Of a stretch of 19,189 nt of DNA, positions 1 to 17,441 are shown one piece after another (the first letter of the stretch is position 1; each line of letters starts with the position of its first letter). The DNA lies in contig JANJXE010000375.1 in assembly GCA_024709185.1 (NCBI GenBank), positions 1-19,189 of the forward strand, written 5' to 3'. This DNA is from Paludibacter sp. GTDB taxonomy: Bacteria; Bacteroidota; Bacteroidia; Bacteroidales; Paludibacteraceae. Below the pieces are notes generated by a model. It had not been told where the DNA came from. It saw only the letters and a program-made list of their open reading frames with translations, and did no database searches. The position numbers and the translations under genes are program-made.

Positions 1-117
1 CTCACCATTAAGTATATCTGCTTCGAACCCGATACTACCAACCTGCTTCAGGAACCGGATATCGAAATCGAACACGATAGCTATCGGAGCTTTGGCCGAA
101 ACAACAATAACAAATGA
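1..117 (+). CDS. trmB: C-terminal end of tRNA (guanine-N7)-methyltransferase (partial, probable)
   Basis: Frame 1 is open from the window edge to TGA at 115-117, followed at once by TAA. It encodes 38 residues beginning LTIKYICFEPDT. The stretch TIKYI.F resembles the last conserved strand of Bacteroidota TrmB, which makes m7G46 in tRNA with S-adenosylmethionine in the cytoplasm. TrmB also commonly precedes mrp in this phylum. Both points are recalled family knowledge, not search results. The tail after the conserved strand is Asn- and Glu-rich and looks disordered. The catalytic part lies outside the window, so the call rests on a short match plus context. Confidence 0.55.
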   Translation, partial: LTIKYICFEPDTTNLLQEPDIEIEHDSYRSFGRNNNNK

Positions 118-121
118 TAAA

Positions 122-158
122 TGTTTAATGATTAATAATTAAACATTAATAATTAAAA
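122..158. repeat. Heptamer-repeat arms, back to back, before mrp
   Basis: The 47-bp gap between the trmB-like stop and the mrp start is almost filled by the 7-bp repeat family of this window. It reads TTTAATG-ATTAATA in one direction and then AACATTAATAATTAA in the other, with no core between. It ends about six bases before the mrp ATG, so the mrp ribosome-binding region is largely repeat sequence. No Shine-Dalgarno-like purine run is seen. Confidence 0.75.
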
Positions 159-1456: not shown

Positions 1457-2263
1457 ATGAAGAAGTTCTATGTAGTACTTATGTTGGTGGCACTTACCAG
1501 CACCTTATCAGCACAAAAATCGCTTACTGAAGGGGCTTTCGAAAATGGTCGCTGGTCGGTAGCCGGCGAGTTGGGTTTCAGTCGCTGGAACGGCGATTTT
1601 CATCCTACCACGGATCAATTCCTGAATGGTTTTGTGCGTAGTCCGCTCATCGGACTGTCGGCCGAGTACAACATCAGCCCGCTATTGGGAATGGGTGTTA
1701 TGATGGGTGGCTATTTCCTGAACCAAAACGACGATAACGAACGGTATGTAGCGCGGGGTGTCTATGTTGCTCCTTATTTATCGACCGATATTTTCGGGTT
1801 ACTGAATGCCGAAAAACTTAAATACTGGAGCCTGTGGGGCAGTGCAGGGGTGGGTATTATCAATCCGATACGTACCCGCTACGGGCGTGCTACTGCTCCG
1901 GGCAATGGCTCCGACATTCCTGTTGCCACTATTGCAGCTCCACCGGCAATGTTGATGCTACCCTTTTCGCTTACCCTCGAGCGCAAAATATCTCCCACCT
2001 TATCCCTCGGCCTGTCGGCCCGCTTCAATGCTTCGAACTCCGACGAGCTCGACGGATTGGTACGCGGCGACTTCAACGACCACTTTCAGAACCTTGCCCT
2101 ACAGGTTCGCTACCGCATCCTACCCGAAAGCCAGGATCATTTCCGCGATAAGAAATTCATCTACCAATCGCCCTACATACGTGCCATACAAAAAAACATG
2201 GAACGGATAGAGGAGTTGGAGCGGAAAGTGGAAAAACTGGAAAAATTAATGATTAATGATTAA
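1457..2263 (+). CDS. Outer-membrane beta-barrel protein with C-terminal coiled coil
   Basis: This 268-residue protein starts with a clear Sec signal peptide (MKKFYVVLMLVALTSTLSA, cleavage near residue 19-20). The mature part has alternating aromatic/hydrophobic strands and Gly-rich turns typical of a small 8- to 10-strand barrel (residues about 30-225), such as OmpW- or OprF-like porins. The final 30 residues (RIEELERKVEKLEKL) form heptad-patterned charged helix, probably a short periplasmic coiled coil. No named family is claimed. It has its own promoter at 1373-1402. The last five codons and the stop (2246-2263, LMIND then TAA) are made by the heptamer-repeat array, so the original C-terminus was probably altered by repeat insertion. 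Confidence 0.75.
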   Translation: MKKFYVVLMLVALTSTLSAQKSLTEGAFENGRWSVAGELGFSRWNGDFHPTTDQFLNGFVRSPLIGLSAEYNISPLLGMGVMMGGYFLNQNDDNERYVARGVYVAPYLSTDIFGLLNAEKLKYWSLWGSAGVGIINPIRTRYGRATAPGNGSDIPVATIAAPPAMLMLPFSLTLERKISPTLSLGLSARFNASNSDELDGLVRGDFNDHFQNLALQVRYRILPESQDHFRDKKFIYQSPYIRAIQKNMERIEELERKVEKLEKLMIND

Positions 2264-2278
2264 TGATTAATGGGTGGG
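2245..2278 (+). repeat. Heptamer-repeat arm (left) with GGTGGG flank
   Basis: Four perfect tandem copies of ATTAATG occupy 2245-2272, followed by GGTGGG (2273-2278). The same order (array, then GGTGG) occurs at 7712-7722 and 17398-17411. The array overlaps the 3' end of the barrel gene and supplies its stop codon. It points toward the OLD gene, with an opposed arm after that gene. Confidence 0.85.
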
Positions 2279-2316
2279 TTTAAGAGAGGATGCTGGTTTG
2301 TTGAAATTAAATTTTC

Positions 2317-4023: not shown

Positions 4024-4070
4024 CCTTAAGCACTATACCTGTTTCTATTGCTACATAAATCACCCCCCCC

Positions 4071-4124
4071 CTCAACCCCAACCATTAATCATTAATCATT
4101 AATCATTAATCATTAATCATTATT
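4071..4124 (-). repeat. Heptamer-repeat arm (right) after the OLD gene
   Basis: CTCAACCCCAACC (4071-4083) leads into five perfect CATTAAT units (4083-4117) and a degenerate sixth (to 4124). The corresponding end of the complete element reads CTCAACCGCAACC before the array at 7788-7800, so this is the same right end. Nine consecutive C residues (4063-4071) sit just before it. The arm is inverted relative to the one at 2245-2278. Confidence 0.85.
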
Positions 4125-5159: not shown

Positions 5160-7685
5160 ATGAAGTCAATCCGTTTTTTATTCTTGCTTTTTATTTTGTG
5201 TGGTGTTGTTAACAGCTCCCTCCTGGCCACCGCTGTTGCCGAAATGGCCATCGTTAAAGGTAAAGTGGTAAACGATAAAAATGAACCTGTCGAATATGCA
5301 ACTGCTGTTCTCCTGAGTCCGGAAACCGGCGAAGTGGTGAAGGGCGAAGTGTGCAACGATAAGGGCGAATTCGCTATCTCACGGGTTAACAAAGGCAACT
5401 ATGTGCTGGCTGTAAGCATGGTGGGCTACAAACAAAAGGATGCTGTTAACCTGGTGGTGGATGGAAAACTGTCGGTAATCGAACGCACCATAGTTCTCAA
5501 CGAACAGGTGGAACAGCTTCAGACGGTGGAAGTGGTGGGTAAAAAGGATTTTATCGAACAGGCCGTGGATAAGGTGGTGATAAACCCCGATGCATCGGTA
5601 ACCACTGCGTCCGAAAATGTGTACGATATCCTGCGTAAACTCCCCGGTGTGAGCATCGATAATAACGATAATATTACACTGAAGGGAATGCAGGGCGTGC
5701 GGGTGCTTATCGACGATAAACCAACTTACCTCACCGCGCAACAGCTGGCTTCGTGGCTCAAAAGTATGCAGGGCAAGGAGGTGGAACGAATCGAGATCAT
5801 CGAAAATCCTTCGGCCCGCTACGATGCGGAGGGCAACTCAGGCATCATAAATATTAAAACAAAACATATCAAAGCACCGGGTTTCAATGGATCGGTTAAT
5901 GGCGGACTGATGCTCAGCGAAGCCTATCGCCCGCAGGCGGCTCCCAATTTCGATGGAACCGCCGGAATAGCTGGTGCATCCGGTACTGCGCAGGTTCTTG
6001 CTCCGTTGGCAACTACTACCCAACCCGAAGCGGCTCCCTTCGGCGGCAACGGTGGCATCAACCTGAATATGAACTACGGTAAACTGAATCTCTACGGAAA
6101 TTACTCCAACTACCACTGGGCGGGATGGAATACCATGGACGCGGTGCGCCGCTATACGGGTACCGAATTGCAGGGGGCCTCGCAACTGATTACCAATAAG
6201 GGCGACTTCCGCGGCAGTTCGCACAACTACAAGGCCGGTGCCGATTATTTTATTGCCAAAAACCATGTGCTGAGCCTTATGGTGCGCGGAAACAGTGGGA
6301 ATAGTAAGGAGGACTTTCGCAATCAAACCAATTTCAGGGATGCTGACCTGAATACCGATTCACTGCTCATTACCGATTCCAAAGGTCACAACAACTGGAG
6401 CAATACCACTTACAATATGAATTACAAGTGGGATATCGATTCGCTGGGGCAGTCGCTGCTGTTCGATATCGACTACGCCCGCTTTCATTTCAATGGTTCC
6501 AACAACCAGGAAGGCCAATACTACCGCCCCGACATGACCGAACTCAACAAGGATCTGCTGGTGGTTACCTCTCAGGGCAACGATATCAGCATCCTGAGCT
6601 CGAAACTCGACCATGTGTGGCCGGTGAGTAAACAACTGCACCTCGAATCGGGATTGAAATTCAGTACGGTAACTACCGAAAGTTTTATCGATATGGATGG
6701 AACCATGACGCAAAACGACCGTTTTATTTATCAGGAAGATATTCAGGCGGCTTACCTCAATGCGCGCTGGCAACTCCGTAAAACAAGCCTGCAACTGGGC
6801 CTTCGTCTCGAAAATACGCTCTCGAAAGGTAATTCGGTGACTACAAATCAGGTGAACGATACTTCCTACCTCAAACTGTTTCCATCGTTTTTTGCACAAC
6901 AGCAACTTACCGATAAGCACAACCTGAATTTCCGTTACAGCTACCGCATTGGCCGTCCCAACTACCAACACCTCAATCCTTTTAAGTGGATGGTCGATCC
7001 GTATACGTTCAACGTAGGTAATCCTAACCTGAAACCGCAGTTTACGCATACTGCCGCGCTTACCCACTCGTACCAGAATAAGCTGATTTCGGCCCTGGGA
7101 GTGAATTATACCGATGGGTTGTTTACCCAGATTATTCGTCAGAACGACGAAAACCGCACGGTGTACCAAACCATGGAAAACCTGAACAGCTCGCTGGATG
7201 TGACCCTGTCGGAAACGCTGCAACTGCAACCTGCAAAATGGTGGCGACTCAATGGTACCCTAACGGGAATGTACAAAACGATCGATTTGGGCGATAACGA
7301 CCCGCTCAGCCGATTCAGCGTGATGGGAAATATGAGCAATACCTTCACCCTTCCCTGGAAAGTGGATCTGGAAGTGAGCGGCCGCTACAGCTCGTCGCAA
7401 CTGGTGAGTAATGTGATTATGCGTCCGCGCTATTCCATCGATCTGGGTGTTCAGCGCAGCTTTTTCAACCGCAAGGGTATGCTGAAACTGGCGGTCAACG
7501 ATGTGTTTAATACCAACCGCGGTAGCGCTTATGCCCGCCACGCCAATGTGGACATCGATGTGCTCAACGGCTGGAGCTCGCGCCGTCTGAGCCTGAGCTT
7601 CAACTACCGCTTTGGCAAAGATGATTTCAAGACACGCGCCAACAGGGCCACTTCCTCGAGCGACGAAAGCCAACGAATCAACTAG
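5160..7685 (+). CDS. TonB-dependent-receptor-like outer-membrane beta-barrel protein
   Basis: The 841-residue protein has a Sec signal peptide (about 1-27), a carboxypeptidase-regulatory-like Ig fold (about 31-115, VKGKVVNDKNEPVEYATAVLL), a plug domain (about 130-240, with YDILRKLPGVSIDNN and VERIEIIENPSARYDAEG), and a long barrel to about residue 815. This order matches the Bacteroidota outer-membrane barrel family related to TonB receptors (PF14905-like). The substrate cannot be read from sequence, and no SusD partner is adjacent. An Ala/Gly/Thr/Pro-rich insertion (about 253-300) lies between plug and barrel and looks like a disordered loop. The polypeptide runs about 25 residues past the last strand in a Ser/Arg-rich tail. 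The stop (7683-7685) is followed immediately by a heptamer-repeat element. It is convergent with the DUF2271 gene. Confidence 0.85.
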   Translation: MKSIRFLFLLFILCGVVNSSLLATAVAEMAIVKGKVVNDKNEPVEYATAVLLSPETGEVVKGEVCNDKGEFAISRVNKGNYVLAVSMVGYKQKDAVNLVVDGKLSVIERTIVLNEQVEQLQTVEVVGKKDFIEQAVDKVVINPDASVTTASENVYDILRKLPGVSIDNNDNITLKGMQGVRVLIDDKPTYLTAQQLASWLKSMQGKEVERIEIIENPSARYDAEGNSGIINIKTKHIKAPGFNGSVNGGLMLSEAYRPQAAPNFDGTAGIAGASGTAQVLAPLATTTQPEAAPFGGNGGINLNMNYGKLNLYGNYSNYHWAGWNTMDAVRRYTGTELQGASQLITNKGDFRGSSHNYKAGADYFIAKNHVLSLMVRGNSGNSKEDFRNQTNFRDADLNTDSLLITDSKGHNNWSNTTYNMNYKWDIDSLGQSLLFDIDYARFHFNGSNNQEGQYYRPDMTELNKDLLVVTSQGNDISILSSKLDHVWPVSKQLHLESGLKFSTVTTESFIDMDGTMTQNDRFIYQEDIQAAYLNARWQLRKTSLQLGLRLENTLSKGNSVTTNQVNDTSYLKLFPSFFAQQQLTDKHNLNFRYSYRIGRPNYQHLNPFKWMVDPYTFNVGNPNLKPQFTHTAALTHSYQNKLISALGVNYTDGLFTQIIRQNDENRTVYQTMENLNSSLDVTLSETLQLQPAKWWRLNGTLTGMYKTIDLGDNDPLSRFSVMGNMSNTFTLPWKVDLEVSGRYSSSQLVSNVIMRPRYSIDLGVQRSFFNRKGMLKLAVNDVFNTNRGSAYARHANVDIDVLNGWSSRRLSLSFNYRFGKDDFKTRANRATSSSDESQRIN

Positions 7686-7832
7686 TAATGTTTAATTATT
7701 AATGATAAATGATTAATGGGTGGTATTGTAGTTTCGATTTACATTTAAGCAGTTTTGTAACCAAGATTATTTAAAAGTATATCGCCTCTCAACCGCAACC
7801 ATTAATCATTTATCATTAATCATTAAACATTG
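7686..7832 (+). repeat. Complete inverted-arm element, copy 1 (34-bp arms, about 81-bp core)
   Basis: The left arm (7686-7719) and right arm (7799-7832) are inverted repeats matching at 32 of 34 positions by my hand count. Each is built of 7-bp units: ATTAATG, ATAAATG, ATTAATG, TTTAATT from the core outward on the left. The core begins GGTGGTATTGTAG and ends CTCTCAACCGCAACC. A second copy with a recognisably similar core, in opposite orientation, is at 15163-15320. No coding capacity is seen. It lies between convergent genes and starts at the first base after the receptor gene's stop codon. As RNA it would fold into a long A-U hairpin with an 80-nt loop. Confidence 0.85.
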
Positions 7833-7840
7833 ATTGAGGT

Positions 7841-7867
7841 CATTAATAATTAATCATTAATCATTAA
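7841..7867 (-). repeat. Extra heptamer arm overlapping the DUF2271 gene's 3' end
   Basis: CATTAAT-AATTAAT-CATTAAT-CATTAA units follow the right arm of element copy 1 after an 8-bp break. The array overlaps the last codons of the - strand DUF2271 gene; bases 7867-7850 read TTAATGATTAATGATTAA, giving LMIND and stop. The identical 18 bases end the barrel gene at 2246-2263. Confidence 0.85.
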
Positions 7868-8617
7868 AGTGCTTCTTTGTTTGCTCTGGTCGTGTACTAC
7901 TACCATATAGCTTCCTTTGGGTAGGGTGCTGATGTTGAAGGTGGGAACCTTGCTGGTGAAGAGCAGGCGGCCGTTGAGGTCGAAGAGCTCGGCATACCTG
8001 AAACCGGGCGCTTCAACAATAAGCTGTGTGCCTTCCTGATTGCGGTGTACCTTTACATTGTCGTCCGTTACGTTGTCTACAGCGGTGTTCACAGGCCTCC
8101 AACTGATGGAGATGTTGCTGTATCCCGACGTTGTAGCCGGAGTAAGGGTGGCCGCTGTCGGACCCTTGGTGAAGGTAAACGATGCTCTGTTGTGCTTTAC
8201 GCCATCGTTGTCGGTAAGCTCCATGTGTAGCGTGTAGGTACCATCGGGAGCCGAAGCTCCCAGGCGGTCCTTGCCGTTCCAGGTGCAACTGCGGGTGGCA
8301 TGCGAGGTTTTTGTGGCGCCGGTCACCGCATCCACGGTATTGTAGGCCGAACCCGCCACAGTGGTTACGTTCTTCCAGTTGGTCAGGTATTGCTTGCGTT
8401 CGCCTGCATAGGCCAGCAGCGTTTTCACAAATTTGTTCTGACTGTCGAGGATGTATATCGCCAGGATGTGCTTGGGGGCATATTCGGGTGTCGATGTCTG
8501 GGATGTGGTGGCCGATACGGTAAGTTGTCCTTCGGTGATGACAGCAGGAACTGCTTCCTGACTAACCAGATTACCGACTACAGCCGAAAAAAGAAGTGTT
8601 ACAAAAAGAGTCTTCAT
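7850..8617 (-). CDS. DUF2271 protein with ApbE flavinylation motif and T9SS sorting tail
   Basis: The 255-residue protein has a Sec signal (about 1-19) and a DUF2271-like domain (about 30-145, with PKHILAIYILDSQNKFVKTLL and an APDGTYTLHMELTDNDG turn). It ends in a C-terminal type A T9SS domain (about 183-255: VEAPGFRYAELFDLNGRLLF ... STLPKGSYMVVV). Residues 96-102 read DAVTGAT, followed by KTS. This matches the Dxx[ST]GAT motif where ApbE attaches FMN through phosphoester to the last Thr (T102 here). The gene is last in an operon that also encodes ApbE. I infer a covalent flavoprotein exported through the outer membrane and anchored or released at the surface. The final residues LMIND come from the repeat array. 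A 115-bp gap with tandem repeats separates it from the DUF3570 gene. Confidence 0.8.
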   Translation of the reverse strand: MKTLFVTLLFSAVVGNLVSQEAVPAVITEGQLTVSATTSQTSTPEYAPKHILAIYILDSQNKFVKTLLAYAGERKQYLTNWKNVTTVAGSAYNTVDAVTGATKTSHATRSCTWNGKDRLGASAPDGTYTLHMELTDNDGVKHNRASFTFTKGPTAATLTPATTSGYSNISISWRPVNTAVDNVTDDNVKVHRNQEGTQLIVEAPGFRYAELFDLNGRLLFTSKVPTFNISTLPKGSYMVVVHDQSKQRSTLMIND

Positions 8618-8682
8618 TGAATATAAAATATTGATGTTGAACGTAGGATTTCAGATTGGATACATTGATGTTGAACATAGTG

Positions 8683-8758
8683 TTTGATCCCGAAACCGAT
8701 AAACTTAATATTTGATTGCAAAACCGTTAAACTTAATATTTGATCCCGAAACCGAGGT
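8683..8758 (-). repeat. 28-bp tandem duplication of the DUF3570 gene's 3' end
   Basis: Units 8683-8710, 8711-8738 and 8739-8758 (partial) share TTTGAT..C.AAACCG and, in the first two, TAAACTTAATA. The unit at 8739-8758 plus part of the middle unit is the real 3' end of the DUF3570 gene (GFGIKY, stop at 8733). The others are non-coding copies just downstream. A second small direct repeat, TTGATGTTGAAC, lies at 8631-8642 and 8665-8676. Confidence 0.8.
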
Positions 8759-10106
8759 TTAAACTCACATTGAAAGCCTGCAGCCCTTTGCTTTGGGATG
8801 GATCGGCCGAAACGAAAGCCTTCAGGTCGGTACTGCGGGTGTAATAGGCCCCCCGCAGTTCAACATATTTAAACTGAAAGATGCCTATAAAGTCGAACGA
8901 CCGGGGCGACCGCAGGATGGCTTCGTTGGGATAGTACTTCACGCCCATGCCGATGCGTTGCGTCTCCATGGCCGATAAATCGTAGTCGGAGGTGTAATAC
9001 TGCTGGTTGGAAGTGTGGGTTTTATACGGCGCGAAATAGGTCGCTGCGGTTTGTGTGTGGAAGCGGTAGAAGGGCGACAGGGTCCACTCGTTGCTAAGCT
9101 TCAGGGGTGTTTCAATATTCCAGGAATGAGCCGCGATGCCGAAATCGTCGGTGTAGTACCGGTAAAAGGCCCGCAATACCAGAAAGTCGAAGGGGAAATA
9201 ATTCAACCTTATGCCCAGCGGTATTTTCAATCGTGATGAAGGCAGACGTTCAATGTCGAAGGCAAATTCTTCTTTGTCTGCAAAATACACACTGTGAAAT
9301 GGGGTGGAAAGCAGTCCGGTCATGTAGATGAGCTCTGCCGACACGCCAATCTGAAGGCGTCGACTGAGGGTTTGCGACAGAAAGAGGGAAGCATTGTACG
9401 AATGTCGCTTCGGGTCGCTGTGCATCGCATAACCCAGAAAATCGCCCAGCCATAGTTCGGGATAAATCAACTGATTACTGTGCTCTTTCCCCAGCCATTT
9501 GTCGAAAAAGGCCTGCCCGGTGAGGTTCAACCCTGTATTTCCATTGTTCCATTCTTTATTATAGGATATGCCGGTGGAAAAGGATTGATAGTCGTATTCG
9601 CGCGAAACGCCTCCCCGTACGCCCCACGATGAGCTCCTCTTCAGGTTTTTACGGGTGTAGCCCAGTGTTCCGTAATTGCGGGTGTCTTGGTACGAGGCCG
9701 ATGATACATTGCTGTCGATATTGTCGGTGGAGGCCGAGGTGTAGGTGTCCGACCCTGCCAGCAGACTAATCGCATTCACGCTGTCGAGCGGTACATTGAT
9801 GATAAACACATTCGAGAAATCATTCAGTTTCTCGGTACCTATACCCCCCGTTACAGGCGAATTGTTTCCATCCTGCTGGTAATAACCGCTCAGGAAGTTG
9901 GCGTCGATGTCGCGAAAAGGTTCTTTGCCTTTGGGGGAGGAAGCTGCGGGCTGTGCAAGCATTGATTCCACGGGCGTCTCTACCGCTGGTTGAACTGTCA
10001 TAGTCTCCGCGGGTAGTACGGCCGCAGGAGCCACGGGTGTTTCTGCCATTATCTGCTGAACTCCCATCAGAAGAACTAATCCCATTGCTCTATGTATATT
10101 CTTCAT
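8733..10106 (-). CDS. DUF3570 outer-membrane beta-barrel protein
   Basis: The 457-residue protein has a Sec signal (about 1-21), an Ala/Pro/Val/Thr-rich linker (about 22-60, PVAPAAVLPAETMTVQPAVE) and then a barrel with many alternating strands up to the terminal GFGIKY, ending in an aromatic residue as outer-membrane barrels do. Segments such as YYQQDGNNSPVTGGIGTEKL followed by DTYTSASTDNIDSNVSSAS fit DUF3570, which I recall travelling with DUF4266, ApbE and thioredoxin genes. Its biochemical role is not established. As a large barrel next to a redox maturation set it might be a porin or scaffold for the flavoprotein. The start is 8 bp after the DUF4266 stop, with GGAG just before the ATG, so translation is probably coupled. 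Confidence 0.8.
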   Translation of the reverse strand: MKNIHRAMGLVLLMGVQQIMAETPVAPAAVLPAETMTVQPAVETPVESMLAQPAASSPKGKEPFRDIDANFLSGYYQQDGNNSPVTGGIGTEKLNDFSNVFIINVPLDSVNAISLLAGSDTYTSASTDNIDSNVSSASYQDTRNYGTLGYTRKNLKRSSSWGVRGGVSREYDYQSFSTGISYNKEWNNGNTGLNLTGQAFFDKWLGKEHSNQLIYPELWLGDFLGYAMHSDPKRHSYNASLFLSQTLSRRLQIGVSAELIYMTGLLSTPFHSVYFADKEEFAFDIERLPSSRLKIPLGIRLNYFPFDFLVLRAFYRYYTDDFGIAAHSWNIETPLKLSNEWTLSPFYRFHTQTAATYFAPYKTHTSNQQYYTSDYDLSAMETQRIGMGVKYYPNEAILRSPRSFDFIGIFQFKYVELRGAYYTRSTDLKAFVSADPSQSKGLQAFNVSLNLGFGIKY

Positions 10107-10114
10107 ACTCCTTT

Positions 10115-10342
10115 TTAATTACAACCGCATCCGCCGCCTACCTTGCCGCCATTGGCTCCCGAAGCGCCTTCGCGGTAGGTCTCGTAATTTGTTTCAAACA
10201 TCTCAATCTTTTTGGCCGAAAGTTCCATCTCGGCATCGTTGAGGTACATTTTCTGCCAGGGCTTTACCGTGCTGCAGGCCGACAGTACCAGCGCGGCTGC
10301 GAGGAGTATCGGGATTGTTTTCTTGTTACTGAGCATTGCCAT
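10115..10342 (-). CDS. DUF4266 small lipoprotein
   Basis: The 75-residue protein has a lipoprotein signal: a hydrophobic stretch (about 9-21) ending in the lipobox LSAC (C at residue 22). The mature part is only about 53 residues, with KPWQKMYLNDAEMEL and the Gly/Cys-rich end GGKVGGGCGCN. The PWQ...L.D..M motif and the CGC(N) end fit DUF4266. The two C-terminal cysteines could bind metal or form a disulfide; their use is unknown. The start overlaps the end of apbE by 17 bp and the stop is 8 bp before the DUF3570 start, so tight cotranslation is expected. Confidence 0.85.
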   Translation of the reverse strand: MAMLSNKKTIPILLAAALVLSACSTVKPWQKMYLNDAEMELSAKKIEMFETNYETYREGASGANGGKVGGGCGCN

Positions 10343-11381
10343 AATAGTTTATTTGCATATTTTTGGAAGGGTGCAGCTGGTTATCTTCATCGATAATCAG
10401 GCCTTCCACCCCGTTTAACTGATTGATCAGGTACAACCCGTCGTCGATGCCTAACACCGAAACCGAAGTAGCCAGTGCATCGGCCAGCTCGGCATCGGCA
10501 CAAATGATGGTCACGCTTTTCAGACCCACCACTGGATAACCGGTTCGGGGGTCGATGATGTGGGAATAGCGCTTGCCGTTGCTGGTGAAATAATGTTCGT
10601 AATCGCCGGAGGTTACTATCGACATGTTATTGAGCCGTATCCAGCCGATGGGCTTTTGTCGCGAGTCGGGATTGGCAAGCTGCACCGACCATCCATCGGG
10701 ATGATTGCTTTGTCCCCAGGCGGTCAGGTCGCCACTGGCATTCACCACGCCACCCACTACCCCCGGTAGTTGCTGCATTTTGTGCTTCGCCCGGTTGGCT
10801 GCATAGCCTTTACCGATGGCGCCAAACCCGATGCGCATGCCTTGTTGAGTCAGAAATACGGTGTTGCGCGCGGTGTCGACTTGTATGTTTCGCCAGTTGA
10901 TGTGCTGCGATGCCTGTTGCACCACCGTGCTGTCGGGCAGGGGATGCTCTCTGCGGTCGAACTTCCACACCTTGGCCATGGAGGCAAAGCTGATGTCGAA
11001 AGCACCGCCGGTAAGCTTCGAAACCGACAGGGCACGACGGATTAAATCGACCAATTCGCGGTCTACTTTCACAGCCCGTATCCCGGCATTGCGGTTGATG
11101 GCTGCGGTTTGCGAGGTAGAATCCCACTCGCTGATGAGTTTTTCGATGCGTTGTATTTCGGCAATGGCTATCCCCACCGCCTGCTGCGCTGTGGCTTTTT
11201 CGGTGGCAATGGCGGTTATTTCAAAACCGCTGCCCATCAACATAAGCGACTGCTTGTGCGATTCGATGGCATGCAGGGGAATATCAGCCACTAATATTAC
11301 GAAAGCTGCAAGGGCAAGGCGCAACGAAACCAGCCGGATTTTCGCCCACTGATCTATCGATCCTGAATCTTGTTTCCCCAT
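10326..11381 (-). CDS. apbE: FAD:protein FMN transferase (ApbE)
   Basis: ApbE hydrolyses FAD and transfers FMN to a Thr/Ser of extracytoplasmic target proteins, using Mg2+. The 351-residue protein shows the family landmarks in order: MGSGFEITAI (49-58), EWDSTS (85-90), GAIGKGYAANRA (188-199), NASGDL (214-219), HIIDPRTGYPV (274-284) and ADALATSVSVLG (300-311). The N-terminus is longer than usual: about 20 charged residues precede a hydrophobic segment (about 20-38). It is not a lipoprotein; it is either Sec-exported or held by a signal anchor facing the periplasm. A shorter start cannot be excluded. The likely substrate, with motif DAVTGAT, is encoded three genes downstream in the same operon. 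Confidence 0.92.
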   Translation of the reverse strand: MGKQDSGSIDQWAKIRLVSLRLALAAFVILVADIPLHAIESHKQSLMLMGSGFEITAIATEKATAQQAVGIAIAEIQRIEKLISEWDSTSQTAAINRNAGIRAVKVDRELVDLIRRALSVSKLTGGAFDISFASMAKVWKFDRREHPLPDSTVVQQASQHINWRNIQVDTARNTVFLTQQGMRIGFGAIGKGYAANRAKHKMQQLPGVVGGVVNASGDLTAWGQSNHPDGWSVQLANPDSRQKPIGWIRLNNMSIVTSGDYEHYFTSNGKRYSHIIDPRTGYPVVGLKSVTIICADAELADALATSVSVLGIDDGLYLINQLNGVEGLIIDEDNQLHPSKNMQINYYGNAQ

Positions 11382-11498
11382 AAATTCCCTCTTTTTTACT
11401 CGTATAATGCACCCGGGTCTTTAACTGCTGTTTAGCGTTGCTAAGAGCATATCAAACCAGGATGGGATGGTACTGTTAGACTACCATCAGCAGTTTCC

Positions 11499-11957
11499 TT
11501 ACTTTTGCGTCGCCAACAGTGCCTCGCACTGTTCAATAAACACTTCGGGCGTTTGGTGCTTGAACGCGATTGTCCCGATCGTCTTCCCTTCGGCTGTCAC
11601 CACCACGATGTACGGAAAATATCCAGCCTTGTTGTAAGCCGCGGCCAGCTTCTCGTTTTGCTTACGCAGCGCATCGGGCAACTGGTTCTTTTGCTGTTGC
11701 GGAAAATCGAGGTACAATACCGCTACCTTCGCCGGATGATACTGTTGAAAAGCTTCGCTGGTAAGTATCGTTTGCTTGAGCTGAATGCAGGGCTTGCACC
11801 AGTCGGAACCGGCAAATACATACAAGATAGGAACCTTGTTTTCCTGCGCATAGGCTTTTGCCTCCGTCTCGGAACTAAACCACGCTTTCGGGACAGCTGT
11901 AGCCTGAAAGCTTAAAAACAGAAATAACGCAACAGTAATTAGCGTGTGGAATTTCAT
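11499..11957 (-). CDS. Exported thioredoxin-fold protein with CKPC active site
   Basis: The 152-residue protein has a Sec signal (MKFHTLITVALFLFLSFQATA, about 21 residues) and one thioredoxin domain. The active site is WCKPC (C54, C57) after YVFAGSD, and the cis-proline is in YFPYIVV (P115). Such proteins exchange disulfides in the periplasm; the YYH-type insert of classical TlpA is absent and the domain is closer to the thioredoxin_7/DUF255-like group. It is first in the operon, 117 bp before apbE. It may keep Cys of the DUF4266 or other exported partner proteins reduced, which is inference from context. Confidence 0.85.
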   Translation of the reverse strand: MKFHTLITVALFLFLSFQATAVPKAWFSSETEAKAYAQENKVPILYVFAGSDWCKPCIQLKQTILTSEAFQQYHPAKVAVLYLDFPQQQKNQLPDALRKQNEKLAAAYNKAGYFPYIVVVTAEGKTIGTIAFKHQTPEVFIEQCEALLATQK

Positions 11958-12273
11958 ACTACACAGAATTTAAACGGAAATAAATGTACTTGATTCAAGT
12001 TCTGAATAAACCTTTAGAAAGCGCAAAAGTAGTAAAAATAAATTTCAATAATTTCTAATCAGCTTTTTTTTATTTGTGACGTTAACATTATTTGTACATA
12101 GCCTGGTTGGTGCGTTTCAAATGTGTTACATTAGTCAGCTTGGTTCTTTGAGACAGAATTCTCAATGGATTGTGGCGTAAACTATAGGAATTTATTCCTC
12201 AAAAGTTTACTTTAGTTGTGAATTTGAACCGTTAATTTGAATATATATATATTTAATTGTTGATTCATGTTAT
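11958..12273. other. Gene-free stretch between thioredoxin and Fic genes: promoter box and two hairpins
   Basis: No gene is seen here. On the - strand TACTTTTG (12031-12024) matches the -7 box TAnnTTTG, 67 bp before the thioredoxin start; no well-spaced -33 was found. Two compact palindromes lie upstream: TTGAGA/TCTCAA with a 6-nt loop (12148-12165), and AGGAAT/ATTCCT with a 2-nt loop (12186-12199) enclosed by AAACT (12179-12183) and AGTTT (12204-12208). They are possible Fic-gene terminators or protein-binding sites. Neither has a clean T run on the - strand. An AT-dinucleotide run sits at 12240-12252. Confidence 0.5.
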
Positions 12274-13398
12274 TTATCGGAATATCTGGAAGTAACGATC
12301 ATACACATATGTTCTTCCACGTTGCCCTCCTGTGATTTCTTTCAAAATTTCCAACCTTTCTAAGTCTATAATTAATTTGTATGCCGTTGGCATTGATATT
12401 CCCGTAATTTCACGAACCTTTTCTGCATTTAGTATTGGACGCTCATATAAGTAGTCAACCACTTTTTTTGCAGTTGCGGCTCTACTACCTAAAGTCTGCA
12501 GTTGTAATTCTGTTGATTTTTGCAATTGCAGAATTTTATCAAATGTTGCAATTCCATTACCAGCAGTTTGTATGATTCCTTCCAGAAAAAACTTAAACCA
12601 CTGATCTAAATCATTTTTCTCTCTCACAAGAGTCAAATTATCGTAATAAAGTTTTCTGTTTTTTTCGAAAAAGTCCGATAAATACAATATCGGTTTTTGC
12701 AAAACTCCTTTACTCACCAAATACAATGGAATTAAAAGTCTTCCAACTCTTCCATTTCCGTCGAGAAAAGGGTGAATTGTCTCAAATTGATAATGAACTA
12801 ATCCGATTTTAAGCAACTCTGGAAAATATATTTCTTCGTTGTGAAGAAATTTCTCAATGTCGCTCATCAGTTCAGGAACACTTGTAGGTACAGGCGGTAC
12901 AAAAACTGCATCATTTAGTGTAGCACCTCCAATCCAGTTCTGACTTGTTCTAAACTCTCCGGGTTGTTTTTTTTCTCCCCGTACGCCTTGTAACAATATT
13001 TTATGCGCTTCACGAATTAGTCTTGTTGAAAAAGGTAGTTTGTCCAATTCTTGCACAGCCCATTCCATTGCTTTGATATAATTTTGGACTTCCTCCCAAT
13101 CATCTCTTTTGTCTAATGGAATATCCTCTTTATCAAGTATGGCATCGTCGATACTGGTTTGTGTCCCTTCTATTCTGTTACTCTGTGTTGCTTCTTTGGC
13201 AACATGCATGCTGATAAATAGATCTACATTCGGAATATACCTGGAATACATGTCTAAGCGACCTAATTCCCTATCGGCTTTACTTAAAAGTTGCACTACC
13301 TCCATGTTGTCAATCAACAATTGCTTGTTGATGAATTCTGGTTGATAGCTTTTGTAATAGCCTTGATTAATTAAAGTTCCTGCTTTGAAAGATTTCAT
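12274..13398 (-). CDS. Fic-domain AMP-transferase-type protein with C-terminal winged helix
   Basis: Fic proteins transfer AMP or another nucleotide moiety to a hydroxyl group of target proteins. The 374-residue protein carries the core motif HPFLDGNGRVGR (209-220), with catalytic H209 and phosphate-binding D213/N215/R217/R220. Upstream, SNRIEG (73-78) matches the inhibitory motif [ST]xxxE[GN], so this is a class II, self-inhibited Fic with E77 as the inhibitory Glu. The last 65 residues (TAKKVVDYLYERPILNAEKVREITGIS...) are a helix-turn-helix/winged helix. The gene is A+T-rich compared with both neighbours, has its own promoter and no antitoxin partner, so a self-contained, acquired gene is likely. 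The target is unknown. Confidence 0.92.
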   Translation of the reverse strand: MKSFKAGTLINQGYYKSYQPEFINKQLLIDNMEVVQLLSKADRELGRLDMYSRYIPNVDLFISMHVAKEATQSNRIEGTQTSIDDAILDKEDIPLDKRDDWEEVQNYIKAMEWAVQELDKLPFSTRLIREAHKILLQGVRGEKKQPGEFRTSQNWIGGATLNDAVFVPPVPTSVPELMSDIEKFLHNEEIYFPELLKIGLVHYQFETIHPFLDGNGRVGRLLIPLYLVSKGVLQKPILYLSDFFEKNRKLYYDNLTLVREKNDLDQWFKFFLEGIIQTAGNGIATFDKILQLQKSTELQLQTLGSRAATAKKVVDYLYERPILNAEKVREITGISMPTAYKLIIDLERLEILKEITGGQRGRTYVYDRYFQIFR

Positions 13399-13404
13399 GC
13401 TAAA

Positions 13405-13473
13405 ATTTAAATAGAGCTGGTTGTTATTTAAATATTTTGCAAATATATTAAATAAGTCCGACTTTTATTTAAA
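13405..13473 (-). promoter_or_regulatory. Fic promoter with TATTTAAA-type operator candidates
   Basis: On the - strand TATATTTG (13447-13440) is a full -7 match, 42 bp before the Fic ATG. The leader between it and the gene holds ATTTAAATA (13405-13413) and TATTTAAAT (13425-13433), a perfect 9-bp inverted pair spaced 20 bp centre to centre, two helical turns. A third TATTTAAA is at 13466-13473, upstream of the -7 box. This fits binding by a dimeric winged-helix protein, possibly Fic itself. The A+T richness of the region raises the chance of coincidence. Confidence 0.45.
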
Positions 13474-13483
13474 GTTGTGCTAA

Positions 13484-15160
13484 CTAAAACCCAAAATCAT
13501 CTATTTCTTTTGTTTCGGCTTCTTCAAAGTCCAGGCTTATCGTGTTATGCGCGGTGAGGCCTTCCACGAAGATGGCTTTCCAGGGCTTGGCGGGACAGAT
13601 GTATTCGCAGCCGCCGCAGCCCACGCATATTTCGGGCTCTATCTCCGGAATGGTAAGGCTGTCTTTGTAATAGACCATGTGCACGGCCTGGGTGGGACAA
13701 TGCTCGCTGCACGCCCCGCAACTGGTTTCGTCGGTGTACACAATGCAGTTTTCGAGATAGAGCTGCACTACGCCCATCTGGTTCAGGTTTTTCTGCTCGC
13801 GGGTGAGGGGCAACAGGGCCCCGGTGGGGCACACGTCGCTACACAAGGTGCAGTCGTAATTACAAAACTGATGGTCGAAATTCATCATGGGCTGCAGCAT
13901 GCCGCCCAATCCGTAGTCGAGAAACGAGGGCTTAATCACCTGCGTCGGGCATTTGGCCACACACAGGTGACAGGAGGTGCACTTTTCGGTGAAGCGCTCG
14001 AAGTTGCCGGCTCCCGGAGGCATGATGGGCAGGGTGCGGCGGATGTCGCGCTTGGATCCCAACCGAAGGGTCATCTCGGCGGATAATCGCGCTGCGGCAA
14101 GGCCGGTTACGCCGAGGGCGGCAAGAAAACGACGACGGCTGGCAAACGCAGGTCGGGTGGTACTAACCATGGGGGCAGTAGTCCCCTGTCCGCTAATAAG
14201 ATGAGTGGATACAGTAGTTGATTCAAGAGTGGAGGTCGTGGCCGTGGCAGATGCTGTGGCGGTGGCCTTCCGCGCAGGTTTCATCCCCGGAGCATTCGGC
14301 GCTGCCAGCTTCTGAACCAGCGCCTCTCCCTTGCGCGGTAGGCGGTACTGCAAGCCCGACTCGCTGCACGAATCTATACAATTAAAACAGGTCACGCAGC
14401 GCGAACTGTCCACCGTCATGTGCTTAAAATCGATGCACGACGACTTGCAATTGCGCGCACAACTGCCACACAGCGTGCAGGCCGAGGAGTCGAACCGGAT
14501 CTGAAACAGCGAGAATCGACTCAGCAGTCCCAGCGTGGTGCCCACGGGACACACGGTGTTGCAGTAGATGCGGCCGTTGCGCCAGGCCAGTATGCTCACC
14601 GTGGCAATAGTGATCAAGGCCACCACCAGCGAAGCTATACTGAGCAGGTAAATGCCGGTTTTGTAAAAGGTGTGGTCGCCAAAAGAGGTAAAAATGCTGA
14701 AAAGTAAATTATTTCCTGCCTGGTACAGGGGCTTGAACAAATGCACCGACATCCGGCCAAAAGCACTGTAGGGGTCGAGCAAGCCTACCAACACATGGAG
14801 CCCACTCACAAAGGCCAGCACCATCAGCACCAAAAATCCGTAGCGCAGCCAGTTGAGCGGCGGCAGATATTTGTACCGTTTTTTAGTTTTCTTGTTCGAA
14901 GTCCACTTGCGCAGACGACTCACTACATCCTGATAAACTCCCAGCGGACAAACCGACGAACAGTAAATACGCCCGAACACCAGTGTAAGCACCACCAGCG
15001 CCACTATCACCACGCCATTCAGCGCCAGCAAAGCCGGCACCAGCTGCACCTGAGCAATGGCATGCACCTGCATAGGCAACAACTCCGCGAAATCCAAGAA
15101 AAACAAGCCTATCAGCACCAACAAAATGGCCGAAACCACAATTCGAATCCGACGTAACAC
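13484..15160 (-). CDS. Membrane polyferredoxin: NapH-like and NapG-like halves with internal Tat-type signal
   Basis: The 558-residue protein has four membrane spans (about 5-26, 42-64, 103-128, 168-192). Two NapH-type motifs, GRIYCSSVCP (64-72) and GRIYCNTVCP (197-205), lie by spans 2 and 4. A two-cluster ferredoxin follows (C228, C231, C234, C238; C255, C258, C261, C265), then an Ala/Thr-rich linker (about 298-338). SRRRFLAALG (341-350) before a hydrophobic stretch resembles a twin-arginine signal. The C-terminal part has four cysteine quartets (C394-C404, C433-C444, C481-C488, C512-C522). NapH and NapG are separate membrane and periplasmic Fe-S proteins of nitrate reduction, but no nap gene is nearby. 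I infer electron passage from cytoplasm to periplasm. The GTG start abuts a heptamer arm; LRRIRIVVSA fits the family start. Confidence 0.85.
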   Translation of the reverse strand: MLRRIRIVVSAILLVLIGLFFLDFAELLPMQVHAIAQVQLVPALLALNGVVIVALVVLTLVFGRIYCSSVCPLGVYQDVVSRLRKWTSNKKTKKRYKYLPPLNWLRYGFLVLMVLAFVSGLHVLVGLLDPYSAFGRMSVHLFKPLYQAGNNLLFSIFTSFGDHTFYKTGIYLLSIASLVVALITIATVSILAWRNGRIYCNTVCPVGTTLGLLSRFSLFQIRFDSSACTLCGSCARNCKSSCIDFKHMTVDSSRCVTCFNCIDSCSESGLQYRLPRKGEALVQKLAAPNAPGMKPARKATATASATATTSTLESTTVSTHLISGQGTTAPMVSTTRPAFASRRRFLAALGVTGLAAARLSAEMTLRLGSKRDIRRTLPIMPPGAGNFERFTEKCTSCHLCVAKCPTQVIKPSFLDYGLGGMLQPMMNFDHQFCNYDCTLCSDVCPTGALLPLTREQKNLNQMGVVQLYLENCIVYTDETSCGACSEHCPTQAVHMVYYKDSLTIPEIEPEICVGCGGCEYICPAKPWKAIFVEGLTAHNTISLDFEEAETKEIDDFGF

Positions 15161-15162
15161 AA

Positions 15163-15320
15163 TATTTAATGTTTAATGTTTAATTATTAATGATTAATGG
15201 TTGCAATGAAGAGATGATTTAAAATTAAACTAATCTTGTAGGGTTACATAGTAGATGAAATGTAAATCGAACCTACACTACCACCCATTAATCATTTATC
15301 ATTAAACATTAATCATTGAA
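15163..15320 (-). repeat. Complete inverted-arm element, copy 2 (about 86-bp core)
   Basis: The left arm (15165-15199) is TTTAATG, TTTAATG, TTTAATT, ATTAATG, ATTAATG. The right arm (15286-15320) is CATTAAT, CATTTAT, CATTAAA, CATTAAT, CATTGAA. Read on the - strand, the core starts GGTGGTAGTGTAGGTTCG and continues ATTTACATTT, like copy 1 with two differences over the first 26 bases or so. It also shares TGTAACC, AAGATTA, TTTAA and the final GCAACC. The middle is diverged with small indels. It lies between the DUF362 stop and the polyferredoxin start, two to five bases before that GTG, so it forms the polyferredoxin's leader. Confidence 0.85.
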
Positions 15321-15390
15321 ACTTGATGGTTTACGGATACACTACAACCTCAAATTTTAACTCGTTTAATCCGTAAACTATCAAGTTTCA
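15317..15390. terminator. 22-bp inverted repeat spanning the DUF362 stop codon
   Basis: Bases 15317-15338 and 15369-15390 are reverse complements except for one position, with 30 bp between them. The 15369-15390 arm is coding sequence for the last residues of the DUF362 protein (KLDSLRI); the other arm is beyond its stop (15350-15352) and abuts the repeat element. In RNA from the - strand the mismatch is A-C; from the + strand it is a G-U pair. No T run follows directly, so it may work as a 3'-end stabiliser rather than a classical terminator. Confidence 0.6.
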
Positions 15391-16297
15391 TTGTTCCCGT
15401 TCCATGCGCTTCGCCCAGCGATAAATGGCCCACATCGCTCAGGGGCATTTCGCGCACCTGATTAAAGAAGTTGGTGGCGGCGGTATCCACTGCGACCATG
15501 TCCTGTGACACAAAGAGGGCCTTCGAGTTCACCACATCGGCTTCGGAGCGGCCGCGCGGACCGTTGGTTTTCATAAGGCGGTAGGCATCCACCACGTTCA
15601 GCACCGGACGGCGGTCGAGCGTGCTGATGTCGGCAATGCACTGCTGCAGGTCGTTGCTGTGGAAAAACTTGCGGTCCCACACAATGCCCATCAGGTTCTT
15701 CATCGAGATGCTCATCTTGGCGCCACCGTGGTTTTTCAGCACTGGCACGTTAATCCACACATCGGCATTCAGTATTGCCTCGTGTACCTTCGTCGTTTTT
15801 AATATTTTTCCTTTGGGGATGGAAATGGGTTTGTAGTAGCTCTCCTGGTCGCCGGGAATCATTTTTCCGCCTGCCTTTTTCGTTTCCGCTTCGATACCGC
15901 TGTTGGCATAGCACTTTTGCCAGTTGTCGCAGGTATGGTCGAAAACGGTCACCTCCGAGGCACCCGCAGCAAAGCACTGCCGCACAATTTCGCCCACCAG
16001 CAGCGGATTGGTGTTGGCCGCCAGCTCAGGTGCCTTGTCCCAGCCGATATTGGGTTTCACACATACCTTTTGGCCTTTTTTGATAAACTTACCCATGCCG
16101 CCCATCTCGGTCATGGCCTTGCGGAACATCGCCACAGGTTCGCCACCCATCACGGCCACCATATCGTACTTGCCCGCTCCCGATGCAGCAGGGGCCGCAT
16201 TCATATTCTGCGACAATACGGTCATCGCGCCCGATTGCTTTACCGAGAAAGCTGCGCCGGCCAATACTGCCGCGCGTAAAAAATTTCTTCTGTCCAT
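15350..16297 (-). CDS. DUF362 protein with Tat signal peptide
   Basis: From the ATG at 16297 the protein has 315 residues and starts MDRRNFLRAAVLAGAAF, a clear twin-arginine signal; an upstream ATG at 16360 would put 21 unrelated residues before it, so I prefer 16297. The DUF362 domain covers almost all of the rest, with VKPNIGWDKAPELAANTNP, VTVFDHTCDNW, WINVPVLKNHGGAKMSISMKNLMGI and PVLNVVDAYR as recognisable conserved blocks. Some DUF362 proteins carry extra ferredoxin domains; this one does not, and the next gene is a polyferredoxin. The Tat signal implies export folded, probably with a cofactor. The biochemical role of the family is unsettled. The preceding phosphoribosyltransferase gene ends 47 bp upstream. 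Confidence 0.88.
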   Translation of the reverse strand: MDRRNFLRAAVLAGAAFSVKQSGAMTVLSQNMNAAPAASGAGKYDMVAVMGGEPVAMFRKAMTEMGGMGKFIKKGQKVCVKPNIGWDKAPELAANTNPLLVGEIVRQCFAAGASEVTVFDHTCDNWQKCYANSGIEAETKKAGGKMIPGDQESYYKPISIPKGKILKTTKVHEAILNADVWINVPVLKNHGGAKMSISMKNLMGIVWDRKFFHSNDLQQCIADISTLDRRPVLNVVDAYRLMKTNGPRGRSEADVVNSKALFVSQDMVAVDTAATNFFNQVREMPLSDVGHLSLGEAHGTGTMKLDSLRIKRVKI

Positions 16298-16344
16298 GTT
16301 TATCTTTTTACGATAAAAAATTGATGTTCGTATAATTAACGACG

Positions 16345-17369: not shown

Positions 17370-17411
17370 TTTAATGTTTAATGATAAATGATTAATGATT
17401 AATGGGTGGGG
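17370..17411 (+). repeat. Heptamer-repeat arm (single) with GGTGGGG flank
   Basis: Five 7-bp units in a row: TTTAATG, TTTAATG, ATAAATG, ATTAATG, ATTAATG (17370-17404), followed by GGTGGGG. The unit order parallels the arms of the complete elements. It lies in the leader of the ECF component gene, 3 bp before the ATG on the - strand. No opposed arm is visible up to the window end. Confidence 0.8.
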
Positions 17412-17441
17412 TGGAGAAGTGGATTCTCTTTTTTACCGGAA

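What the first reader, a model, noticed from the sequence alone, without database searches (positions are those of the whole stretch)
7686..15320. An interspersed element family: inverted arrays of a 7-bp unit around a conserved 80-86-bp core
Copy 1 (7686-7832) and copy 2 (15163-15320, opposite orientation) share arms of 7-bp units in a similar order (ATTAATG, ATAAATG, TTTAATG/TTTAATT) and a homologous core: GGTGGTAkTGTAGkTTCG at one end, GCAACC at the other, and TGTAACC and AAGATTA inside. Copy 1's arms are inverted repeats at 32 of 34 positions. Further arms lie at 122, 2245, 4071, 7841 and 17370: seven loci in 19 kb. Heptamer arrays are known in cyanobacteria (STRR repeats), but a heptamer-armed, core-bearing element in Bacteroidota is not something I recognise. 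It could be a non-autonomous mobile element, a transcript-end hairpin, or a protein-binding array.
Basis: seen in the sequence. Interest (0 to 1): 0.85.

Follow-up and report, generated by a model that had tools for sequence, protein, structure and literature searches.

The report
Gene-border hairpin repeats with seven-base arms
This bacterium's genome carries dozens of copies of a roughly 150-base hairpin-shaped repeat, with arms made mostly of five seven-base units, wedged into the gaps between genes; a sister species has the same design with a different seven-base unit, so these gap-fillers seem to be renewed as species diverge, by a process not identified here.

Summary
Both copies and all five extra arms are in the window. 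Its genome (3.41 Mb, 82.7% complete, Paludibacter-like) has 25 aligned copies plus half copies and solo arms. A full copy is one long hairpin: about five heptamers (WTWAATG), a core beginning GGGTG, and inverted heptamers. 0 of 59 relatives match (E<=1e-8), and 0 of 392 other order genomes match the core (coarse search).

64 of 83 outer arm ends lie within -20..+12 bp of a called gene end (random expectation 16%; inner ends of solo arms 7 of 43), and all 20 full elements abut a gene on at least one side. In the closest relative two of these gaps are only 3 and 10 bp. That relative has its own TTGTTAA-armed elements, one with a half core resembling ours (E=0.0014 in a restricted test). Period-7 arrays are common in the genus.

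Best reading: a non-autonomous palindromic insertion element, one family in a turnover of heptamer gap-fillers. Arms supply stop codons, so insertion at gene edges is tolerated. The mobiliser is unknown. Selection for RNA pairing is not supported. Four-helix-bundle (IVP/Avd-like) genes adjoin such arrays in 3 of 4 cases met: a lead only.

The parts
7684..7718 (+). copy 1, left arm: five heptamers AGTAATG TTTAATT ATTAATG ATAAATG ATTAATG; begins at the stop codon of the TonB-type outer-membrane gene 5160-7685
7719..7799 (+). copy 1, core (GGTGGTATTGTA...TTTGTAACC...CCGCAAC), itself an imperfect palindrome
7800..7834 (-). copy 1, right arm, inverted heptamers
7841..7868 (-). second inverted arm beside copy 1; supplies the last residues and stop (...LMIND*) of gene 7850-8617(-)
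15165..15199 (+). copy 2, arm next to the GTG start of the ferredoxin-like gene 13484-15160(-)
15200..15285 (-). copy 2, core, opposite orientation to copy 1
15286..15313 (-). copy 2, arm towards the DUF362 gene 15350-16360(-)
2245..2295 (+). half element: arm (2245-2272) that supplies the stop codon of gene 1457-2263 (...KLMIND*) plus half core GGGTGGGTTTAAGAGAGGATG
4064..4124 (-). half element: half core (4064-4082) and six-unit arm (4083-4124); exception to the abutting rule (59 bp after one gene, 270 bp before the next)
17370..17430 (+). half element 3 bp from the start of gene 16812-17366(-): arm 17370-17404 plus half core GGGTGGGGTGGAGAAG
117..155 (.). arms-only palindrome between the stop of an upstream gene and the Mrp/ApbC gene 165-1274; the gap is 47 bp here and 3 bp in sister genome G030

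Best explanation
It is a non-coding, near-palindromic interspersed element of 128-186 bp: about five 7-bp units, a half core (GGGTG...GATTTACATTTAA), a short middle, the other half core inverted, and about five inverted units. SHOWN: many copies in one genome; arm outer ends mostly locked to gene edges (stop codon, start codon, a tRNA 3' end); relatives lacking the element at the junctions read; a sister species with the same design, a different heptamer and in one copy a similar half core. INFERRED: the element is copied as a palindromic unit into the short gaps (or last codons) of this genome by a machinery encoded elsewhere. Because an arm carries stop codons in all frames, and as a rule no ATG when read towards a gene start, insertion at a gene edge costs little. 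The palindrome explains why arms mostly read outward from genes. Later internal deletions leave half elements and solo arms. Families turn over, so each species fills its gaps with its own dominant heptamer version.
For: Copies: 92 matches in own genome, 25 aligned copies; arm-plus-GGGTG pattern (up to 3 mismatches) 49 + 53 matches in G000, 0 in its reversed control, at most 2 in any of 59 relatives. Hairpin: four copies folded, one on both strands, give -45 to -56 kcal/mol, z -8.6 to -11.4. Placement: 64 of 83 outer ends within -20..+12 bp of a called gene end, inner ends of solo arms 7 of 43, random base of array-free gaps 16%; 20 of 20 full elements have at least one end, and 10 of 20 both ends, in that range (counted). 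G030: DUF362-to-ferredoxin gap 10 bp against 189; gap before Mrp 3 bp against 47. Orthologous proteins align to within 0-6 residues of the end where an arm supplies or follows the stop: TonB-type 839/841, 1457-2263 262/268, C392 genes 262/262 and 380/384, C465 genes 484/485 and 121/122 (best relative each), so stops were replaced rather than genes cut. Five units in 50 of 74 arms argue for inheritance as a unit. G030 has TTGTTAA pattern matches 28 + 18 (overlapping), G000 none; G030 arms occur in inverted pairs; one G030 arm flank matches the G000 core model from its first base, E=0.0014 among 22 flanks.
Against: No autonomous partner found; PF01797 (RAYT/IS200 transposases) gives 0 matches in this 82.7%-complete genome, and other transposase families were not searched. 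No target-site duplication could be read. Arms abut genes even in long promoter-containing gaps (for example window 17370), which random insertion plus selection does not explain fully. At two junctions (C392 7350 and C465 3467) the element seems to replace older filler rather than add to it. 19 of 83 outer ends do not abut a called gene (some are missed genes, one follows a tRNA). Part of the 3'-end locking is automatic, because a reading frame that enters an arm stops within three units. The heptamers are not exclusive: 17 of 59 relatives have some WTWAATG-type arrays (at most 7 + 25 matches, against 104 + 110 in G000), and 28 of 47 other genus genomes have some TTGTTAA matches (up to 11 + 5 outside G030 in the counts shown).
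Confidence: 0.55

Rival explanations
1. Host-made gene caps: heptamer arrays are written or homogenised at gene borders by a genome-wide copying process (recombination or templated synthesis), and hairpins arise wherever two capped borders face each other; the core is secondary.
For: Arms cap borders without the shared core (G030 C112, C137, C66, C70: stems with T-runs lie between or after the arms, by reading). Arms begin 1-4 bp after a tRNA gene in both species. At 3 of 10 G000 array junctions whose G030 counterpart was read, G030 also has an array, with its own unit; some two dozen array sites are listed for G030, so a few per cent of gaps at most would be expected by chance (rough estimate). 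Period 7 accounts for 30 of 54 tandem arrays of period 4-12 in 240 kb fetched for its genes (overlapping loci, 25 of the 30 distinct).
Against: The full copies resemble copy 1 at 69-85% identity with the core included, which border-wise capping does not predict. Ten junctions are few; four of them, with two of the three shared sites, come from one element-rich contig (C465). No enzyme is known to me for it.
Confidence: 0.2
2. Transcript-end or inter-gene RNA hairpin (terminator, mRNA stabiliser or processing site) kept by selection.
For: Stable folds, on both strands for copy 1. Convergent pairs enriched among array-bearing gaps, 14 of 55 against 7 of 97, P=0.003. One copy stands where G030 has a stem with a T-run after the same gene (J7).
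Against: Arms of one copy are no more complementary to each other than to arms of other copies (0.888 against 0.888). RNAalifold finds 13 pairs, 0 with compensatory change. 33 of 83 outer arm ends face gene starts. 0 of 22 terminator-like sites in the window overlap an element. The closest species lacks this element at the ten junctions read.
Confidence: 0.12
3. A mobile unit whose protein partner is a four-helix-bundle gene of the 23S rRNA IVP / Avd-like family, carried between two hairpins.
For: In G000 contig C465 an IVP gene (PF05635, E=2.3e-20) lies between two full elements where G030 has one element and no gene. In G013 and G062 IVP genes again adjoin heptamer arrays. 3 of the 4 distinct IVP genes met in all fetched DNA do so; 0 IVP genes in an 800-kb sample of four genus genomes.
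Against: Only four genes, and the three loci were fetched because they hold arrays; the fourth (G034) was not beside a heptamer array. IVP numbers in G000, G013 and G062 as a whole are unknown. I know of no transposase activity of IVP.
Confidence: 0.08
4. Protein-binding array (nucleoid or regulatory protein) that happens to be repetitive.
For: Mostly five-unit arms with nearly invariant AAT (positions 4-6: 365, 365 and 367 of 367 units) and T2 and G7 above 90%.
Against: The dominant unit differs between sister species, and no functional class of neighbours stands out among the few annotated.
Confidence: 0.05

Closest known systems
TAACTGA heptamer direct repeats (MacGregor 2015, PMC4679880; abstract, passages and section 12 seen)
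   Same: 7-bp unit containing stop codons, intergenic, next to start codons or overlapping stop codons; in five Bacteroidetes including Paludibacter propionicigenes; strain-specific distribution; [quoted passage not shown]
   Different: There the arrays are direct repeats not predicted to form structure by themselves; here the unit differs, arms are inverted in pairs round a recurrent half-palindromic core, and the whole recurs as one element.
Long simple sequence repeats with heptanucleotide units (Mrazek et al. 2007, known to me only as cited in PMC4679880)
   Same: Heptamers as the favoured period
   Different: Slippage alone does not give the same mostly five-unit arm and the same core at dozens of sites.
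Bacterial MITEs (RUP, NEMIS, ERIC; description seen in passages of PMC3733652)
   Same: 70-300 bp, inverted termini, no coding capacity, next to genes, able to fold into a strong hairpin
   Different: Terminal repeats are tandem heptamers; no parent transposon and no target duplication found; ends locked to gene borders.
REP / REPIN elements with RAYT transposases (PMC3733652 passages; other papers as search listings with abstract starts only)
   Same: Palindromic, intergenic; singlets and inverted doublets resemble half and full elements here
   Different: REPs are 20-40 bp and go with a Y1 transposase; PF01797 is not found in this genome.
23S rRNA intervening sequences with IVP protein (PF05635; resemblance to Avd of diversity-generating retroelements from passages of PMC10053308)
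   Same: An IVP gene next to inverted heptamer repeats in G000 and G062, and between heptamer arrays in G013
   Different: Not in rRNA genes; most elements read have no such gene beside them.

Membership tests
MITE | short (70-300 bp), non-coding, inverted terminal repeats | tested here: met
   128-186 bp in the 25 aligned copies, inverted heptamer arms
MITE | multiple copies at sites that are empty in relatives | tested here: met
   25 aligned copies; none of the relatives' junctions read carries the G000-type (ATTAATG) element, though three of ten in G030 carry an array of another unit
MITE | target-site duplication | tested here: inconclusive
   flanks of copies printed and read by eye only; too A+T-rich and too diverged from G030
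MITE | parent transposon with the same ends | not tested
   only PF01797 was searched for; the stretches read are about 215 kb of 3.41 Mb and were not scanned for other transposases
REP/REPIN with RAYT | Y1 transposase gene in the genome | tested here: not met
   0 matches, genome 82.65% complete, controls ring in 5 of 14 genomes
REP/REPIN with RAYT | 20-40 bp palindrome | tested here: not met
   half element about 65 bp, full 128-186 bp; the GTAG/CGTC tag was not searched formally
TAACTGA-type heptamer arrays | tandem 7-bp units beside start and stop codons | tested here: met
TAACTGA-type heptamer arrays | unit TAACTGA | tested here: not met
   unit WTWAATG in G000, TTGTTAA in G030
intrinsic terminator | G+C-rich stem followed by a T-run | tested here: not met
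   0 of 22 terminator-like sites in the window overlap an element; window only
Rfam RNA family | match at gathering score | tested here: not met
   0 matches in the window

The most novel reading that the evidence does not exclude
Bacteria of this genus keep a genome-wide system that writes a lineage-specific heptamer cap at gene borders and rewrites it as species diverge: some of the same borders, a related half core, a new unit. An IVP/Avd-like four-helix-bundle protein, whose relative Avd is needed for retrohoming in diversity-generating retroelements, is a possible partner, which would make the arrays products of templated copying rather than slippage or ordinary transposition.
Probability: 0.1. 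Interest if true: 0.92.

Novelty: new variant of a known kind. Interest (0 to 1): 0.62.

Why it matters
Heptamer arrays in bacteria have been noted before (PMC4679880 and work cited there), with only tentative explanations for their place beside start and stop codons and their strain-specific distribution. This genus offers a natural experiment: sister species with the same genes, the same junctions and different dominant heptamers, in copies large enough to have a core. That makes the open question (slippage, transposition or templated copying?) testable by resequencing a few related strains. It also shows that at many gene gaps here the whole sequence between genes is recent repeat filler, which matters for reading promoters, terminators and gene ends: at least two annotated-style C-termini in the window (...LMIND*) are encoded by the repeat.

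Tried and rejected
RNA structure kept by selection: within-copy arm pairing equals between-copy pairing, no compensatory pair; rejected as the main explanation. Simple slippage at each site: rejected by the shared core and the mostly five-unit arms. RAYT/REPIN: rejected for lack of PF01797. Truncating insertion inside genes: rejected where orthologues could be aligned. Element or core elsewhere: 0 of 59 relatives at E<=1e-8 (at most 14 candidates scored per genome) and 0 of 392 other order genomes at E<=1e-5 (at most two candidates per genome scored, and this search found only 2 of the own copies, so it is weak). G000 core model against 93 kb of G030: best E=0.13 (best in shuffled DNA three times as long 2.5), not significant by itself; it becomes 0.0014 only when restricted to the 22 sequences next to G030 arms, a restriction chosen after the first result; the three-copy G030 core on contig C38 gives no significant match (best E=0.2). 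The reversed-pattern control is uninformative, because the unit read backwards is a rotation of itself; the reversed control rings more than the pattern in some relatives (for example G020, 29 + 24 against 0). The upstream prints were made without turning minus-strand loci, so only some rows show the true upstream region. IVP genes in the 800-kb sample: 0. Literature: the listings showed no title or abstract start on heptamer-armed hairpins; open-access library only, and only four papers were opened, in part. Not run: covariance model, structure prediction, viral-contig scans, protein homology search, other transposase families.
Full report
CHECK OF THE OBSERVATION. The window's heptamer runs are real and beyond chance: runs of three or more units at all seven loci named, none in 100 Markov-resampled windows (nine arms with the looser unit definition). 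Copy 1 and copy 2 are homologous over their whole length (score 196, best of 200 shuffles 80). The own genome (G000, 3,409,762 bases, 558 contigs, 82.65% complete, 1.4% contamination) gives 92 BLAST matches to copy 1 on both strands. I aligned 25 copies that hold most of both halves; they are 128-186 bp long. Eight further matches are half copies that end at the centre of the palindrome (...TTTAAA, by reading), and there are solo arms. An arm-plus-GGGTG pattern (up to 3 mismatches) gives 49 + 53 matches in G000, none in its reversed control, and one or two matches in each of 5 of 59 relatives.

ANATOMY. A full copy is one imperfect hairpin. About five heptamers of the form WTWAATG lead into GGGTG, then a half core (either GGGTGGTATNGTANNTTCGATTTACATTTAA or GGGTGCGGTTAAGAGATGATTTACATTTAA when read inward; my summary), a middle with TTGTAACCGTACAA, and the other half inverted. 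Four copies, one of them on both strands, fold at -45 to -56 kcal/mol, z -8.6 to -11.4. Of 74 arms anchored on the core, 50 have exactly five units. Unit 1 is ATTAATG in 62 of 74; TTTAATG rises outward to 24 of 69 at unit 4 and 23 of 61 at unit 5; the AAT inside the unit is nearly invariant. Arms therefore look inherited as units and not freely expanded. Yet the two arms of a copy are no more complementary to each other than to arms of other copies (0.888 against 0.888), and RNAalifold shows no compensatory pair, so selection for RNA pairing is not supported.

PLACEMENT. I called genes on the fetched G000 stretches by codon usage and measured each arm's outer end to the nearest called gene (66 arrays or elements, 20 of them full). 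64 of 83 outer ends lie within -20 to +12 bp of a gene end. A random base of the 97 array-free gaps in the same stretches does so in 16% of cases (P about 3e-34), and the inner ends of solo arms in 7 of 43. All 20 full elements have at least one end in that range and 10 have both, so that they fill the gap (counted). At gene ends the stop codon is often the TAA of the first, second or third heptamer (offsets -5, -12, -19); at gene starts the arm commonly ends 1-5 bp from the start codon. One copy begins a few bases after a tRNA-Arg gene, and in sister genome G030 an array begins 1-2 bp after a tRNA-Ala gene. Full elements sit in 11 tandem, 8 convergent and 1 divergent gaps; array-bearing gaps are enriched for convergent pairs (14 of 55 against 7 of 97, P=0.003). 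A caution: a reading frame that enters an arm must stop within three units, so part of the 3' locking is automatic. 19 of 83 ends do not abut a called gene.

RELATIVES. The nearest named relative is a Paludibacter sp. MAG (L128, 77% protein identity), the same contig as G030:C92 by length (40,505) and position. At the ten G000 array junctions whose counterpart in G030 could be read (before Mrp, TonB end, DUF362-ferredoxin, 17370, and C392 and C465 junctions J1, J2, J3, J4/J5, J6, J7), none has the G000 element. The DUF362-to-ferredoxin gap is 10 bp there (189 here) and the gap before Mrp 3 bp (47 here). Orthologous proteins align to within 0-6 residues of the G000 end (839/841, 262/268, 262/262, 380/384, 484/485, 121/122; best relative each), so the insertions replaced stops rather than cutting genes. 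At three of the ten junctions G030 has heptamer arrays of its own (TTGTTAA-like). This unit gives 28 + 18 overlapping matches in G030 and none in G000, but some in 28 of 47 other genus genomes counting G030. The WTWAATG pattern gives 104 + 110 in G000, none in G030, and at most 7 + 25 in 17 relatives that have any. So the units are dominant in a species rather than exclusive to it. G030 arms also occur as inverted pairs round cores, and also cap genes with no such core, with terminator-like stems between or after them. One G030 element, at the junction before the 687-residue gene, has a half core that matches the G000 core model from its first base (E=0.0014 among 22 arm-flanking sequences; only 0.13 in an unrestricted 93-kb search), in the opposite orientation to the G000 copies there. 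Another G030 core (three copies on contig C38) gives no significant match. Genome G034 fills several of the same gaps with other modular palindromes.

GENUS-WIDE. In 240 kb of genus DNA fetched for its genes, 30 of 54 tandem arrays of period 4-12 have period 7 (some loci overlap, 25 of the 30 are distinct, and part of the DNA is orthologous to G000 array junctions). In an 800-kb sample of four genomes period 7 gives 42 of 190 arrays of period 4-15: commonest in G016 (16 of 86) and G068 (11 of 47), second to period 14 in G066 (14 against 17 of 52), and only 1 of 5 in G034. The units differ between species. Heptamer arrays in Bacteroidetes, including Paludibacter, were reported before as TAACTGA direct repeats near start codons, with close relatives lacking them in two cases (PMC4679880, abstract, passages and section 12). 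The inverted, core-bearing element was not seen in the listings.

MECHANISM. The evidence for a dispersed insertion element is good: a shared core at dozens of sites, and sister-species junctions without it. How it moves is not shown. PF01797 gives no match in the assembled genome, and no target duplication is readable. The palindromic form explains why arms mostly read outward from genes, and short gaps explain abutment on both sides. Abutment in long promoter gaps is explained less well and keeps the capping rival alive; for example at window 17370 a half element lies between TATATTTG, also present in G030 and like the Bacteroidetes -7 motif as I recall it, and the start codon. A third possibility came up late: in G000 an IVP/Avd-like four-helix-bundle gene (PF05635) lies between two full elements at a junction where G030 has one element and no gene, and IVP genes adjoin heptamer arrays in G013 and G062 too. 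Only four IVP genes were met, the three loci are biased towards arrays, the fourth (G034) is not beside a heptamer array, and none occurs in the 800-kb sample. I give it as a lead. The link between PF05635 and Avd is taken from passages of PMC10053308.

VERDICT. Real, not a terminator in the ordinary sense, and not matched to a known repeat family here. It is a new variant of two known kinds at once (MITE-like palindromic repeats and bacterial heptamer arrays), with an unusual locking to gene borders and an apparent exchange of the dominant unit between species.

Noticed in passing
window 15318-15338 and 15369-15389: A 21-bp inverted repeat: the 3' end of the DUF362 gene (GAAACTTGATAGTTTACGGAT) is repeated inverted just after its stop codon, directly beside copy 2; it looks like a template-switch quasi-palindrome.
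   Followed up: no
L033:6977-7336 (G000 C465); L224:1538-1897 (G013); L216:1584-1865 (G062): IVP/Avd-like four-helix-bundle genes beside heptamer arrays or full elements; in G000 the gene is absent at the same junction in G030 and G034.
   Followed up: partly
L160 (G034) 8965-9200 and other G034 junctions: G034 fills several of the same gene gaps with modular palindromes such as AACGGATTTTCTTCGAAAATCCTAAT and GGCGCCAGCGAAGCGCGCC, a different repeat family with the same placement.
   Followed up: no
L133:1458-1502 (G010): A TTGACGG heptamer array that appears to lie inside the open reading frame of the ferredoxin homologue, so arrays without stops in that frame may enter genes.
   Followed up: no
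L288 (G008 C316), L161:15346-15412 (G068): Inverted heptamer arms with little or no core in two further species (units like ATTARYG; CACCAGA/CGCCAGT).
   Followed up: no
L278:1415-1489 and L050:1977-2051: tRNA genes whose 3' ends are followed within a few bases by heptamer arrays in two species.
   Followed up: partly
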